Shown here: positions 36,092-42,278 of the stretch, piece after piece
Position numbering within the stretch: the first letter of the stretch is position 1
Layout: every line of letters starts with the position of its first letter
NCBI GenBank assembly: GCA_025060695.1
Contig: JANXBH010000007.1
Location: 1 to 64,000 of the forward strand
Direction: 5' to 3'
Length of the DNA stretch: 64,000 nt
Source: Caldifarciminota bacterium
GTDB lineage: Bacteria; Hydrothermota; Hydrothermia; LBFQ01; DSFT01
Program-made: the position numbers and the translations under genes
The notes under the pieces: model-generated
Seen by the model: only the letters and a program-made list of their open reading frames with translations
The model's database searches: none
What the model was told of the DNA's origin: nothing

Positions 36092-37072
36092 TTATTGAAT
36101 ACCGCTGTTTATTCTATAAACTTCCCAGTTATATGCGGTCTTTAGTATAAGTTCTAAATCGTCATACTTAGGTTCAAATTTTAATATACTTTTGATTTTT
36201 CTATTATCGCATATAAGTACTTCTGGGTCTCCTAATCTTCTTTCTGTAAACTCGTATTTAAATGGTTTCAAAATCTTATTTGCAAGTTCTACAACTTCAA
36301 GAACACTATAGCCCTTACCATAACCTAAATTAAATATATTACTCTGCTTTGTTTCTAATAGGTATTCAAGTGCTAATCTATGCAATCTTGCTAAATCAAG
36401 TATGTGAATATAGTCTCTAATTGCAGTACCATCCTTCGTGCTGTAGTCTTTGCCGTATATATATAGTTTTTCGTAAAAACCTAAAATAGTCCTAACTATT
36501 CTTGAAATTAAATGAGTTGGCTGTTTTTTATATTGACCCAACTTACTATCTAAGCTTGCACCTGCTGCGTTAAAGTATCTTAAAATTACATACTCAAAAT
36601 TGTATTTATTTTTTAAATCCATGATTGCTCTCTCAAAGAAAAACTTTGACCAACCATATGGATTTAGTGGTTCTATGGGATGATTTTCATCAACCGGAAT
36701 AATCTTAGGATTACCATATACAGCTGCAGTTGAGGAGAATATAAAGAACTTTAGATTTCTGTCTAAGAAGAACTTTAGCATTTTTAGAGCTTTGTAAAAG
36801 TTATTTTCATAATATTTAAAGGGATTTTCAACAGACTCAGGTGCAACTATATATGCAGCGCAGTGAATAATTATATCAGGTTTAAAGTTTTCGTAAATAT
36901 CGTAAAGAATCTTTTCATTAGCAATATCACCTACTACTAACTTATGATTTCCAACTGCCCACTTATGACCTTCTTCAAGTGAATCAAGAACAAGCAATTC
37001 ATAGTCTTTAGATAATTCATTTAGAATAAAACTACCAACATAACCTGCACCACCAGTAATAAGGACTTTCAT
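36092..37072 (-). CDS. galE: UDP-glucose 4-epimerase
   Basis: A 326-residue short-chain dehydrogenase-fold enzyme. The NAD-binding [23 protein letters not shown], active-site SSTAAVYGN and YGWSK (Tyr-x3-Lys), and the YFNAAGA motif all match GalE. It supplies UDP-galactose for surface glycans, fitting the several glycosyltransferases nearby. Its start overlaps the aminotransferase stop by 4 bases. Confidence 0.93.
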
Positions 37073-37893
37073 AAAATTCTTTCTTTAAATACTCTATAAA
37101 TTTTCAGTGTCCTTTCACCAACTTTATAGTTAAAATTATCTATTGACTTTACTGGCAAAATCTCCGTAGTCGTACCAGTAATAAAGCACTCTTCTATCCT
37201 TTCCAATTCATAAACATATATAGGTCTTTCAATAACTTCAAAGTTTAAGGATTTTGCTATGTTTAATACCTCATTTCTTGTTATACCAGCTAAAATTTCA
37301 TTTGTCAAGGGATGAGTAATGAGCTTATCGTCAATAAATGCAAAAAATGAACTAGAGGCACATTCTGTGATTTTTGAATTTTTTATAAAAAGAGCTTCAA
37401 ATCCACCTTTCCTTTTTGAGTATTCCTTCGCTAATACGTTAGGCAATAGATTTAAACTCTTAATATCGCACCTTTCCCATCTAATATCAGGGTAAGTAAA
37501 GAGTTTAACACCATTAAATCTAATACTTTCTTCAATAGGTTTAAATAGTCTAAATATAATAAAAAAATTAGACTCAACTTCATTTGGTGGAAATTCGTGC
37601 ATCCTTTCATATGAACCTCTAGAAACTTGGACATAAATTTTCACGTAGTCAATATTTAAAATCCTAATACCTTCATAAACAATATTTTCTATTTCCTCCT
37701 TACTATATGGAATTTTTAGGAAGATATTACTTGCACTATAAAATAGTCTGTTTAAGTGTTCATCCAATTTAAAAGGTTTATTATAATACGATAAGACTAC
37801 TTCATAAACACCATCTCCAAAATTAACTGCCCTTTCCTCTATTGGTAAATATGCGTCTTTACAAAACTTATCTTTAAAAAAATATAAATACAC
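37069..37893 (-). CDS. Fold-type IV aminotransferase (D-amino-acid or branched-chain type)
   Basis: A 274-residue PLP enzyme. The N-terminus FGDGVYEVVLSYYNKPF, then YVQVSRGSYERMHEFPPN, and KSLNLLPNVLAKEYSKRKGG with the later EILAGITRNEVLNIA match fold-type IV enzymes. The RGSYERMHEFP pattern is closest to D-alanine aminotransferase, so a D-amino-acid role (peptidoglycan precursors) is likely, with IlvE-like activity as the alternative. The start is GTG 37893, with a TAAAAT box 8 nt upstream. Its first nine codons are inside the 74-bp repeat. Confidence 0.85.
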   Translation of the reverse strand: MYLYFFKDKFCKDAYLPIEERAVNFGDGVYEVVLSYYNKPFKLDEHLNRLFYSASNIFLKIPYSKEEIENIVYEGIRILNIDYVKIYVQVSRGSYERMHEFPPNEVESNFFIIFRLFKPIEESIRFNGVKLFTYPDIRWERCDIKSLNLLPNVLAKEYSKRKGGFEALFIKNSKITECASSSFFAFIDDKLITHPLTNEILAGITRNEVLNIAKSLNFEVIERPIYVYELERIEECFITGTTTEILPVKSIDNFNYKVGERTLKIYRVFKERIL

Positions 37894-37941
37894 GATTGAA
37901 AATTTTAAAGTAAGTGCTTTAAAATTCTAAAAATTAAAAAG
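37868..37941. repeat. 74-bp direct repeat, left copy flanking the R-M cassette
   Basis: Identical to 40380-40453 except at three positions (37889, 37927, 37931). It contains the first codons of the aminotransferase gene and both facing promoter boxes. Confidence 0.95.
37902..37925. promoter_or_regulatory. Divergent promoter pair, aminotransferase / R-M operon
   Basis: Minus box ATTTTA at 37902-37907, 8 nt from GTG 37893. Plus box TAAAAT at 37920-37925; the DNA methylase ATG is at 37949, so its leader would be about 17 nt with no Shine-Dalgarno. TTGAAA at 37896-37901 could be a -35 for the plus box. Confidence 0.55.
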
Positions 37942-37948
37942 TTTTAAA

Positions 37949-39385
37949 ATGACTCAATTTATTGGGTCTAAACGCCAGCGTGCTTTTGGTGAATATCTAA
38001 CTCCTACTACCTTACTTCAAGAATATATATTGCCCGAAATTACTCCTCTGCTTACAAAGTACATCTGGGTGGATTTGTTTGCTGGTGAAGGAAACTTGAT
38101 TTTACCTTTGCTTGAACTTTTCCCACTTCCTGAAAGAAAAGACTTTTTTGAAAAACACATTTTCTTGTATGACATTCAACCTGAAATGGTTGAAAAGAGT
38201 ATCCAGCGTGCTATCAAGATGGGCATTCCTGAAGCACTAGCACGTCAAAACATCAAATGTCAAGACACACTTGCTAACTATCCTATAGAAATATTTAAAA
38301 GCCATTTACCTGTATTCCATATTACAAATCCGCCCTACCTCTATATTGGCTACATCGTAAAGCATCTTGATACACACTACTATCTTGAGTATTTCAAAGG
38401 TGATAATGAAGGCTACCAAGATCTTTACCAAATAGCGCTTATGAACGACCTAAGACATAACATTCCACGTATGGTTTATATAATTCCCACAAACTTCCTG
38501 TTTGGTTTTTCCAACTCAAATAAGATACGCGATGACTTTTTAAAGTTTTACAGAATTGAAAAAGCGGTTATTTTTGAAAAAGAACTTTTCAAGCATACTG
38601 GAGTTCATGTAGCAATCTGCTTTTTTAATCGCAAAGAGTTTCCCGCCATTGAAGTGCAAGAGTTTGAAGGCTTGAAGATTAACTACACAGTTCAAAAGCG
38701 ATTTTATCGCCTATTGCCTAAACTTCACTATAGAGCTGGTACCGAGTTTGAGGAATTTACAGCAAGATTTCGTGCTCCTAATCCGCTCAAGGTTAAGTAC
38801 TATCTAAACCTATTTACTTTGGAAAACCATAAAGGTAGCTATTCACTCCGTCTCGTTAACGCAAATAAATACGCGAGCAACAAATATCACAAATTTATAG
38901 CACAAGTTAGCGAAGAGCTATATAGGCTTGTAAAAGCTAATCCGCTGTTCTTGCGAACGCTAGATACAGGAAACCATAGTGGGCGTGCTGGGCTATATTT
39001 AATTCCTGAAGAGTTTAATGCAGACGGGATTGTAGTAACTAAGTCGCCCTATCGCACTCATCCAATTCAGGTCTTTTTAGAACCTTCCTTACCCCACGAA
39101 GACATTTTGCTCTTGAAAGATTACTTTAACTTACTACTGGAGCACTTTCGTAAGCTTACGGACAGCGAATTTATGACTACTTACAAGTATTCAAATAGTA
39201 AGTACACTCGCAAGTATCTTGGCTTAACTCAGGCAAAAGCACTCATTGAAACCTTTCCCTATAAAAACATTTCAGAAGCACAGCGCGAAGAACTAAGGGA
39301 ATTAGTCCGAAGCAAGGATACTAATGGTATTTTGCGCTTTCTTGAATCCATTCGTACAGGAGGCAGATTAAATTATGGGGCTTAA
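37949..39385 (+). CDS. DNA adenine-N6 methyltransferase of a type II restriction-modification system
   Basis: A 478-residue methylase. Motif I (WVDLFAGEGNLILP) binds SAM, motif IV is NPPYLY at residues 127-132, and the opening QRAFGEYLTP is typical of the Eco57I/TaqI-like gamma class. The rest is probably the target-recognition domain. Codon use differs sharply from its neighbours: CGC and CGT arginine codons are frequent here while surrounding genes use AGA/AGG, and base composition is less AT-rich. With the 74-bp flanking repeats this marks the cassette as recently acquired. It overlaps the next gene by 11 bases. Confidence 0.88.
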   Translation: MTQFIGSKRQRAFGEYLTPTTLLQEYILPEITPLLTKYIWVDLFAGEGNLILPLLELFPLPERKDFFEKHIFLYDIQPEMVEKSIQRAIKMGIPEALARQNIKCQDTLANYPIEIFKSHLPVFHITNPPYLYIGYIVKHLDTHYYLEYFKGDNEGYQDLYQIALMNDLRHNIPRMVYIIPTNFLFGFSNSNKIRDDFLKFYRIEKAVIFEKELFKHTGVHVAICFFNRKEFPAIEVQEFEGLKINYTVQKRFYRLLPKLHYRAGTEFEEFTARFRAPNPLKVKYYLNLFTLENHKGSYSLRLVNANKYASNKYHKFIAQVSEELYRLVKANPLFLRTLDTGNHSGRAGLYLIPEEFNADGIVVTKSPYRTHPIQVFLEPSLPHEDILLLKDYFNLLLEHFRKLTDSEFMTTYKYSNSKYTRKYLGLTQAKALIETFPYKNISEAQREELRELVRSKDTNGILRFLESIRTGGRLNYGA

Positions 39386-40013
39386 AAAAAACATAGAGTA
39401 CTGGAACATATCTTTGCAACATCCGGAGTTAATCGGCGAAGAATTTTACAAGCGTGATGAGATTATTATTGAAGATAATTCGTACCTTGACGATGTAGCT
39501 CGTCTACGCGAATTAATTATTGCTTATTGTACTTTGAAAGAGATGGAGTTAAACTATGATGTATATAATCATATCATCGTTAGTATAGACGATATATTGA
39601 GAAATAGAGAAAATATTCAATACACTGAGTTCGTTGCCTACTGGAAATGTCTAGATATGACTTTTAGTGTTTACAATGCAATTCAGGAAGATAGATTGCG
39701 GCTTCAGATACTTACTGAAGCTTTAAATGAATACTGTCTGCAACGACGTAAGTTATATGACAGATTGGGATATAGCCATATAGTACAACAAGCGCTTTAT
39801 GACAATTCTAGCTCTCGCTCGCAAGGTACATCTGGAATGAATAAACTCCAAGCAATTCTCTATGAGGCAACAGGACAGAAAATTCCAGAAGTGAGTAAAA
39901 TTAATGAATTTCATGCTTTACCTATCTGCCAAATAATTCCCAAAAAAGGCTCGTTTAAAGAGTTAATGCAAAGCCTCAAAGCGAATTATAGTTTTGGGGA
40001 GAACCGACAGTGA
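39375..40013 (+). CDS. Probable restriction endonuclease, N-terminal part
   Basis: A 212-residue, largely helical protein with no motif I can name (YLDDVARLRELIIAYCTLKE, then WKCLDMTFSVYNAIQED). Its place directly after the methylase, with an 11-base overlap and the same foreign codon use, suggests the cognate endonuclease. It ends just before an ORF that contains an ExK-type nuclease core, so the two may be two subunits or one gene split by a frameshift around 39992-40013. Function rests on context. Confidence 0.55.
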   Translation: MGLKKNIEYWNISLQHPELIGEEFYKRDEIIIEDNSYLDDVARLRELIIAYCTLKEMELNYDVYNHIIVSIDDILRNRENIQYTEFVAYWKCLDMTFSVYNAIQEDRLRLQILTEALNEYCLQRRKLYDRLGYSHIVQQALYDNSSSRSQGTSGMNKLQAILYEATGQKIPEVSKINEFHALPICQIIPKKGSFKELMQSLKANYSFGENRQ

Positions 40014-40315
40014 TTGAAGCAAAACACATTAAAGAGTCAGGTGGAAGTCAAGACAAACAGCTTAATGAATTAATCGCTTATATCAGTTATCAAGAACAGC
40101 AAAACTCACCTGTGAGGTATGTAGCATTTCTTGATGGTTTTTACTTTCATCTAATGGCATCAGCAACACAGGGAACTAAGCCCTACAGGCAACGTAGAGA
40201 CATAGAGAATGCGCTAAAACAAAATCCTCGCAACTATTTTGTCAACACAAGAGGTTTACGCGAATTACTGAGCGATGCTTATGAATATGCAACAAAAGTT
40301 AACCCAAAGCTTTAA
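40010..40315 (+). CDS. Probable restriction endonuclease, nuclease-core part
   Basis: A 101-residue protein starting at GTG 40010 within the upstream stop (GTGA overlap). Its start, IEAKHIKESGGSQDKQLNEL, has the E-x-K half of a PD-(D/E)XK nuclease site followed by the Gly/Gln pattern seen in some type II restriction enzymes. The matching acidic residue should lie upstream, so the piece is unlikely to cut DNA alone. The same frame is open upstream back to 39992, consistent with either coupling or a frameshift. It closes the cassette. Confidence 0.55.
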   Translation: MIEAKHIKESGGSQDKQLNELIAYISYQEQQNSPVRYVAFLDGFYFHLMASATQGTKPYRQRRDIENALKQNPRNYFVNTRGLRELLSDAYEYATKVNPKL

Positions 40316-40375
40316 TAGACAAAAACCCAGTGTGAAAGTTTTAGAAACAGCAAAAATAAAAACTTAAAGGAAACT

Positions 40376-40405
40376 TCATTTATCTTTAAAAAAATATAAA
40401 CACAC
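40376..40405 (-). pseudogene. Nine-codon remnant of the aminotransferase gene
   Basis: On the minus strand GTG at 40405 starts MCLYFFKDK and then stops at TGA. The intact gene starts MYLYFFKDK. This is the duplicated 5' end of the gene at 37069-37893, carried in the right copy of the repeat. Confidence 0.9.
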
Positions 40406-40453
40406 GATTGAAAATTTTAAAGTAAGTGCTTTAAAATTTTAAGAATTAAAAAG
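40380..40453. repeat. 74-bp direct repeat, right copy flanking the R-M cassette
   Basis: Matches 37868-37941 at 71 of 74 positions with no gaps; offset 2512 bp. It supplies the promoter for the surface-protein gene at 40464. Confidence 0.95.
40432..40437 (+). promoter_or_regulatory. TAAAAT box in right repeat, upstream of surface-protein gene
   Basis: GCTTTAAAATTTT; the ATG at 40464 is 26 nt further on and has an AAAAAGGGGG ribosome site, so this transcript carries a short leader. Confidence 0.5.
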
Positions 40454-40463
40454 GGGGTTAAAG

Positions 40464-42278
40464 ATGGTGTGGGTAATGCTTTATATTAGTGAAATGAAAT
40501 ACTTAGAGAAATCAGGAGGTGAATGGGTATACATCTCATCTTCAGATAGTGGTATATTAAAAAAGGTTCATAACTACACTCATCCATATCCAATTGTAGA
40601 GAAAAAAGTAAACCCCTATCAAAATAAAGTATACAGAAAACCTGTAAGTACCAATCATATATCCGATAGTTTGTCGCAAGAATTTCAAATAACTTACTCA
40701 GGGACAGTAAGGGACGTAAAAGCAGCATATTCAAGAAGAATAGGTAGAGTAGTATATACTTGGAGTGAACAAGATCCAAGCTGCAACAATACATATTGTC
40801 TTCATGTCTGGAGAGAAGGTTATCCATATATTTACGTATTTGCATGGCCCGGTACATCAGATCCTGATATAGCTATTGGTGATACAAATAGATGGGCACT
40901 TATAAGTTTTAACGATGCGGCTGATGATAGCTTGTATTGGATATACTACGACCTTATAGCAGATACATTTTCTTATTACTACTGGGCATATGAACCATTA
41001 GATATTAGAATTGGAAATACCTGTGAACATTGGGAGAGCTTCTCTGTATTTCAAGAACCATTACCAAATGGTAATTATGCAACATTCTTTAGTGAAGTTT
41101 CAAGATGGTGGAATACTAATAATCAGTGCAACTATTCACCAGGTCAAGATATAGACTCATCTGGAGCATATATAGGAAGTTTTCTATTTGGAGGAAGGCC
41201 CCAAGTAGGCTTAATATCTGGAAGCTATAGGAATATTTTAGGATTTATGCACTTCTATGAAAATCCTTCTAGTGATAGAGCAAGGAGAATTTCTATTAAC
41301 TTTGGTAGGGATTATCTCTATCATCCAATTGCTAAAAATAATAACAATATTTACTTTATTGCCTATGAGCTTCAAGTTTGGAGACCTCCAAGAAATGTAG
41401 TAAATAAACAGCAATGGATAGATTTTGTAGTAATAAATCAAAATAGAGATACAATAAACACAGGAAGGGTCGCAAATAGACTAATATCAGGAGCAAGCAA
41501 TTATATATCTATGTCAGAAGATACATTTCCTGCAAAGCATCCTGATATTGCAAGCAACGGAAATACTTTCACAGTTGCATTTACAAGAGTCTATACAAAT
41601 TTAAATAATTGGGATGTATCTACGGGTGATTATGACATTGGAAGAAGATTTGTAGCTTTTGGAACTAATGGCTGTAATACTAATAGATGGTGTGTTTATG
41701 GTGGAAACTATGCAGCAAGAAGTTCAAGAAGAGAATATCATCCAAGAATAGAATTTGATAGACAGAATTACATTTTAGCGTATGGGGATTCTATGTTTTC
41801 TTTACCGTCATCAAAACTTAGATGGAGAGAAGTTAGCAACATAGATGGAAGCTATTCTGATACCACAGGAAGAGCAGTCACAAACAATCTATTTAGATAT
41901 AGTTGGGGAACAATTACAAGTTCATTTGATTTAGTTCCTACTCTTGATACTGTAAGGTGTCAGGATAATACTTGGAGAAGGGTAATGAGATTTGTATACA
42001 TAAAAACAACAAATGGAACAAATAGGGATGTATATTATAGAAGAATGCTATTTACAGGATGTATAACACCTGTTAATATTGTTGAAGCTGAAAACAAACC
42101 ATTTTATTTTGATTATAACACTAAGAACATTATATTAAATAGAGACGAACCTTTAAAGATTTACGACGTTTCAGGAAAACTAATTATGGTTATAAGCAAA
42201 AGGGGAAAATATGAACTAAATCATCTTAATAAGGGGATTTACTTTATAAACAGAAACTACAAGATAGTTATAAATTAG
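40464..42278 (+). CDS. Secreted surface protein with C-terminal sorting domain
   Basis: A 604-residue exported protein, Trp/Tyr/Arg-rich with repeated beta-propeller-like strands (KAAYSRRIGRVVYTW, SDPDIAIGDTNRWALISF, KHPDIASNGNTFTVAF). Several cysteines are present. The last 60 residues form a type IX sorting-like domain (LKIYDVSGKLIMVI, NKGIYFINR). No enzyme motif seen; the body resembles sialidase-type or exo-alpha propellers without clear Asp boxes. The ancestral layout probably had this gene directly divergent from the aminotransferase gene before the R-M insertion. Its end overlaps tadA by 11 bases. Confidence 0.75.
   Translation: MVWVMLYISEMKYLEKSGGEWVYISSSDSGILKKVHNYTHPYPIVEKKVNPYQNKVYRKPVSTNHISDSLSQEFQITYSGTVRDVKAAYSRRIGRVVYTWSEQDPSCNNTYCLHVWREGYPYIYVFAWPGTSDPDIAIGDTNRWALISFNDAADDSLYWIYYDLIADTFSYYYWAYEPLDIRIGNTCEHWESFSVFQEPLPNGNYATFFSEVSRWWNTNNQCNYSPGQDIDSSGAYIGSFLFGGRPQVGLISGSYRNILGFMHFYENPSSDRARRISINFGRDYLYHPIAKNNNNIYFIAYELQVWRPPRNVVNKQQWIDFVVINQNRDTINTGRVANRLISGASNYISMSEDTFPAKHPDIASNGNTFTVAFTRVYTNLNNWDVSTGDYDIGRRFVAFGTNGCNTNRWCVYGGNYAARSSRREYHPRIEFDRQNYILAYGDSMFSLPSSKLRWREVSNIDGSYSDTTGRAVTNNLFRYSWGTITSSFDLVPTLDTVRCQDNTWRRVMRFVYIKTTNGTNRDVYYRRMLFTGCITPVNIVEAENKPFYFDYNTKNIILNRDEPLKIYDVSGKLIMVISKRGKYELNHLNKGIYFINRNYKIVIN

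What the first reader, a model, noticed from the sequence alone, without database searches (positions are those of the whole stretch)
37868..40453. R-M cassette flanked by 74-bp direct repeats that duplicate a promoter and a gene start
37868-37941 and 40380-40453 match at 71 of 74 positions, 2512 bp apart, and enclose only three genes with foreign codon use. The repeat is the host's divergent promoter plus the first nine codons of the aminotransferase gene; the right copy retains the useless gene start (MCLYFFKDK then stop). So the cassette entered between two divergent genes and duplicated their shared promoter, giving itself one copy and leaving one for the surface-protein gene. No transposase is present. 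Insertion with a long target duplication has been described for other R-M genes; here it captures a promoter. A crossover between the repeats would excise the cassette cleanly.
Basis: partly seen in the sequence, partly recalled or inferred. Interest (0 to 1): 0.8.

Follow-up and report, generated by a model that had tools for sequence, protein, structure and literature searches.

The report
R-M insertion that duplicated a promoter
A foreign DNA-methylating and DNA-cutting gene pair (the cutter is now broken) sits between two near-identical copies of the host's own two-way promoter, as if its insertion copied that promoter so that both it and the neighbouring host genes could be expressed; a sister species carries a related gene pair in the same kind of arrangement at a different site.

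Summary
The 74-bp repeats match at 71 of 74 positions, the full unit occurs only twice in the genome, and the pair scores 121 bits against at most 34.6 in 439 control placements. Only the central ~27 bp is a common genome motif, a divergent near-leaderless promoter. The enclosed genes are clearly foreign. Corrections: there are two genes, not three, and the restriction gene is broken (about 46 bp with the catalytic PD missing, frame shifted).

The aminotransferase end of the repeat is native to that gene, the other end to the surface-protein gene, so a single copy once lay between them. No empty site was found; the sister species is rearranged here.

The sister species has a related R-M pair between 29-bp exact repeats at another site. 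The left copy gives the methylase its start; the right copy is the native promoter and start of a B12-binding gene. A distant bacterium has the same R-M type between 114-bp repeats. The other 30 relatives show no convincing flanking repeat.

[quoted passage not shown] The insertion mechanism is unproven.

The parts
37069..37893 (-). Aminotransferase class IV gene; its GTG start and first nine codons lie in the left repeat copy
   Evidence: PF01063 E 1.9e-49; 72% identical ortholog in G001 with a similar start MKLYFIDNKW
37868..37941 (.). Left copy of the 74-bp direct repeat (aminotransferase start, divergent promoter)
   Evidence: 71/74 identical to the right copy; full unit only twice in the genome
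37902..37925 (.). Divergent promoter palindrome ATTTTAAAG-TAAGTG-CTTTAAAAT, left copy: 8 nt before the aminotransferase start, 23 nt before the methylase ATG
   Evidence: Genome-wide motif: 199 of 434 CTTTAAAAT lie 6-10 nt before an ATG; 36 divergent pairs, 0 convergent
37949..39385 (+). DNA adenine methylase (NPPY motif), open, foreign codon use
   Evidence: PF02384; 45-68% identical relatives in many thermophiles; codon percentile 0.1
39375..40013 (+). Restriction nuclease gene, N-terminal part (broken)
   Evidence: Aligns with the first two thirds of one ORF in relatives; weak Tsp45I family match of a relative
40010..40315 (+). Restriction nuclease gene, C-terminal part with the EAK of the active site; about 46 bp with the PD are missing just before it and the frame is shifted
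   Evidence: Single ORF in 14 of 16 relatives that hold the gene
40376..40405 (-). Fossil aminotransferase start, VCLYFFKDK then stop
   Evidence: Translation
40380..40453 (.). Right copy of the 74-bp direct repeat, native promoter of the surface gene
   Evidence: G001 ortholog has GCTTTAAAATTT ... GGTTAAA before its ATG
40464..42278 (+). Surface-protein gene with a T9SS-type sorting tail
   Evidence: TIGR04183 E 1.5e-4, just under cut-off; 72% identical in G001

Best explanation
A foreign type II R-M pair (methylase plus a nuclease distantly related to Tsp45I; 2438 bp with almost no flanking DNA) entered the intergenic region between a divergent aminotransferase gene and a surface-protein gene, and the 74-bp target was duplicated. 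The left copy keeps the aminotransferase start and puts a host promoter just upstream of the methylase. The right copy keeps the surface gene's promoter. Shown: the repeat, its uniqueness, which end is native to which gene, the foreignness of the insert, loss of the nuclease active site, and a related arrangement at another site in the sister species. Inferred: that one event made both the insertion and the duplication, that the left copy drives the methylase, and that later decay removed the nuclease while the methylase stayed open. The molecular cause of the duplication (staggered break, template switching, or something linked to the R-M enzymes) is unknown.
For: Repeat pair far beyond chance and unique. 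Each end of the repeat is native on its own side. Insert strongly foreign and of a family scattered over unrelated thermophiles. No terminal inverted repeats and no transposase. Same layout with a related R-M pair in G001 at a different site, where the repeat is the native promoter and start of the B12-binding gene, and a 114-bp repeat around the same R-M type in L038. Insertion with long target duplication is described for R-M systems (PMC3874152, PMC3031569, PMC1643837).
Against: No empty site found; the aminotransferase and surface gene are not neighbours in G001. Only 3 of 33 relatives show a clear flanking repeat. In G001 part of the 29-bp likeness may be shared promoter consensus or microhomology at the MNK start, and that site is rearranged as well. 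The methylase has no clear ribosome site.
Confidence: 0.68

Rival explanations
1. Integration of a circle: an R-M circle carrying one 74-bp copy (from an earlier excision in a related strain) recombined into the single chromosomal copy, giving flanking repeats without a new target duplication in this cell. The three differences would then be strain differences.
For: A 37-bp identical core could support recombination; foreign insert bounded exactly by the repeats.
Against: It only moves the question back: the first joining of R-M to the promoter still needs an insertion. No circle was seen; the related G001 case is at another site.
Confidence: 0.12
2. Tandem duplication first: the aminotransferase start, promoter and surface gene were duplicated in tandem and the R-M pair later replaced the first surface-gene copy.
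For: The surface gene is present as two tandem copies in the G001 assembly, and a second long-repeat locus in G000 looks like a decayed duplication.
Against: Needs two events. No trace of a first surface gene is left, and the 64 bp after the nuclease have no significant match downstream of the surface gene. It does not explain the G001 R-M locus.
Confidence: 0.1
3. Assembly artefact: the 37-bp identical core joined pieces that are not neighbours, for example an empty site and a separate R-M molecule.
For: Draft genome in 77 contigs; the identical core is a possible branch point.
Against: Both copies carry their own variants outside the core; a related layout occurs in an independently assembled genome at another site.
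Confidence: 0.05

Closest known systems
Insertion with long target duplication of R-M systems (Nobusato et al. 2000, Helicobacter pylori; described in PMC3874152, PMC3031569, PMC1643837)
   Same: R-M genes between direct repeats of tens to about 100 bp, no transposase, repeat taken from the target.
   Different: Here the duplicated target is a divergent promoter plus a gene start, and the inserted methylase lies directly behind one copy. The empty site was not seen. Whether promoters were duplicated in the published cases could not be read (the 2010 genome comparison is not held).
R-M genes flanked by direct insertion-sequence repeats (composite-transposon-like; PMC3031569)
   Same: Direct repeats on both sides would allow loss or amplification by recombination.
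   Different: The repeats here are host promoter and gene start, not insertion sequences.
Tsp45I-type R-M systems (Pfam PF06300 nuclease)
   Same: The methylase family is shared with the G001 locus, whose nuclease is a clear Tsp45I-family member; a relative of the window's nuclease matches the family weakly.
   Different: The window's nuclease itself has no Pfam match and lacks its PD motif; its recognition site is unknown.

Membership tests
R-M insertion with long target duplication | R-M genes enclosed by direct repeats much longer than a transposon's target duplication | tested here: met
   74 bp, 71 identical, 121 bits against at most 34.6 in controls
R-M insertion with long target duplication | Repeat is target sequence: one copy native on each side | tested here: met
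   Aminotransferase start conserved in G001; surface-gene promoter conserved in G001
[quoted passage not shown]
   G001 rearranged, G002 and G003 without a match
R-M insertion with long target duplication | No transposase or integrase and no terminal inverted repeats | tested here: met
   Only the R-M ORFs lie inside; longest inverted match of the ends is 6 nt, as in random pairs
Functional type II R-M system | Intact methylase with catalytic motif | tested here: met
   Open ORF with NPPY, aligned over its length with relatives
Functional type II R-M system | Intact nuclease with PD-(D/E)XK site | tested here: not met
   PD segment missing and frame shifted
Functional type II R-M system | Methylation of, and protection at, a defined site | not testable with these tools
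   No reads or methylome held
Tsp45I family (nuclease) | Match above the Pfam cut-off | tested here: not met
   No match for the window's two ORFs; no PF06300 match in G000

The most novel reading that the evidence does not exclude
This R-M type inserts by a transposase-free route that tends to duplicate a host promoter or translation start, so that the incoming genes are expressed from a host signal while both neighbours stay intact: a recurrent promoter-copying insertion.
Probability: 0.25. Interest if true: 0.75.

Novelty: new variant of a known kind. Interest (0 to 1): 0.52.

Why it matters
R-M systems spread widely without obvious transposases, and how they insert and become expressed in a new host is open. 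Two related insertions in one genus, at different sites, both with a copied host promoter or gene start, give concrete junctions on which to test models of insertion with target duplication. They also suggest why such insertions survive: both neighbours stay intact and the incoming methylase has a ready promoter.

Tried and rejected
Chance repeat: rejected by 439 control placements and genome-wide searches. Transposon or integrase unit: no such ORF, no terminal inverted repeats. Phage carriage: one scan of viral contigs found no relative. Solved-structure search of the methylase: no match. PADLOC and NCBIfam scans added nothing beyond weak methylase matches. Empty-site search in same-family genomes: none, loci rearranged. 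Flanking repeats in G009, G025, G069 and G006: none convincing. Site avoidance as evidence for this cassette: GTNAC is strongly avoided in G000, but also in relatives where the methylase search found none, so it is a lineage feature and not evidence for this insertion. The 2010 R-M genome comparison (PMC2853133) is not held.

Full report
What was checked. The two 74-bp stretches at 37868-37941 and 40380-40453 match at 71 positions. The whole unit occurs nowhere else in the genome; the other hits are short pieces centred on AATTTTAAAG-N6-CTTTAAAATT. That core is a genome-wide promoter: CTTTAAAAT lies 6-10 nt before an ATG at 199 of 434 sites, and 36 divergent pairs occur against no convergent pair. 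Control placements of a 2.4-kb cassette reached at most 34.6 bits; the real pair scores 121.

Which copy is native where. The aminotransferase start in the left copy (VYLYFFKDKFC) resembles the start of its 72% identical ortholog in the same-genus genome G001 (MKLYFIDNKW). The right copy has the same start followed by a stop, so its coding part is the useless one. On the other side, the G001 ortholog of the surface gene has GCTTTAAAATTT, a ribosome site and GGTTAAA before its ATG, as the right copy and its downstream bases do. Each end thus belongs to its own neighbour, which implies that one 74-bp copy once lay between the two genes.

The insert. It is 2438 bp. The methylase (37949-39385) is open, keeps a native-length start compared with relatives, and is strongly foreign: codon-use percentile 0.1 and 20 of 28 Arg codons CGN. 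The next two ORFs are one restriction gene in 14 of 16 relatives that hold it. Here the segment with the PD of the PD-(D/E)XK site (GKEPDLVLKSGKHFFI in L010) is missing and the frame is shifted, so the nuclease should be dead. Two relatives (L067, L069) are also broken in this gene. The insert's ends have no inverted repeat beyond chance.

Related loci. Of 33 loci of this methylase family with usable flanks, three have clear flanking repeats: the window (121 bits), L038 (113) and L074 (54.5); two are marginal at 39.2. L074 is in G001. There a related methylase (57% identical, with a stop codon inside) and a true Tsp45I-family nuclease lie between 29-bp exact repeats. The right repeat is the native promoter and first codons of a B12-binding gene: G000's own B12 gene has nearly the same sequence and no R-M. 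The left repeat gives the methylase its start (ATGAATAAG), and the right repeat's TAA ends the nuclease, which has lost roughly nine C-terminal codons compared with G025. RmlD, the gene to the left, also ends inside the repeat, whereas its G000 ortholog ends earlier and is followed by tRNA genes, so this site was rearranged too. Promoter-like sequences elsewhere in G001 match the repeat at 27 of 31 positions at best. The flanking pair is therefore the best in that genome, but part of the likeness may be shared consensus or microhomology at the start codons. L038, from a distant bacterium, has a 114-bp, 82% repeat found only twice in its genome, ending 7 bp before a nucleotidyltransferase gene.

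What could not be shown. No empty site was found. In G001 the aminotransferase has other genes upstream, and the surface gene lies beside mutS as two tandem copies on another contig. No reads are held, so excision, the assembly junctions and expression are untested.

Reading. Insertion with long target duplication is described for R-M systems (PMC3874152, PMC3031569, PMC1643837). This locus fits it, with the empty site outstanding. What may be new is that the duplicated target is a promoter or gene start used by the incoming genes, seen at two different sites in one genus and possibly in a third, distant case. Survivorship is a simple explanation: insertions that spare both neighbours and arrive behind a promoter are the ones that last. 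That would make the pattern a filter rather than a targeting mechanism, and three cases cannot tell these apart.

Site avoidance. GTNAC is the most avoided word of its kind in G000, but relatives in which the methylase search found none avoid it too. It is reported only in passing.

Noticed in passing
Genome G000 (1.32 Mb examined), e.g. window 30247, 37903, 40415, 44018, 48739: Genome-wide promoter motif CTTTAAAAT, usually 6-10 nt before an ATG (near-leaderless genes); divergent genes share palindromic overlapping copies (36 divergent, 0 convergent).
   Followed up: partly
Genomes G000, G001, G002, G003, G005, G006, G008, G009: GTNAC is strongly avoided (G000: GTSAC 0.19 and GTWAC 0.24 of expected), also in relatives where this methylase was not found; G012 and G025, which hold Tsp45I-family nucleases, show little or none.
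   Followed up: partly
L122:1945-4183 (G000 C11 21945-24183): Second long direct-repeat locus: a decayed copy of the 5' part of an outer-membrane-like gene and the intact gene flank two small genes (148 and 242 aa); looks like an older duplication or insertion.
   Followed up: partly
L073:102-4116 (G001 C187): The surface-protein gene is present as two tandem, near-identical copies next to mutS; a real duplication or an assembly effect.
   Followed up: no
L074:7054-8469 (G001 C94): The methylase there has an internal TAA while its Tsp45I-family nuclease is nearly complete; either the nuclease is inactive or the stop is a sequencing error.
   Followed up: partly
G000 C2, C4, C14 contig ends and C75 67098-67945: Arrays of regularly spaced repeats of about 30 bp that look like CRISPR arrays.
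   Followed up: no
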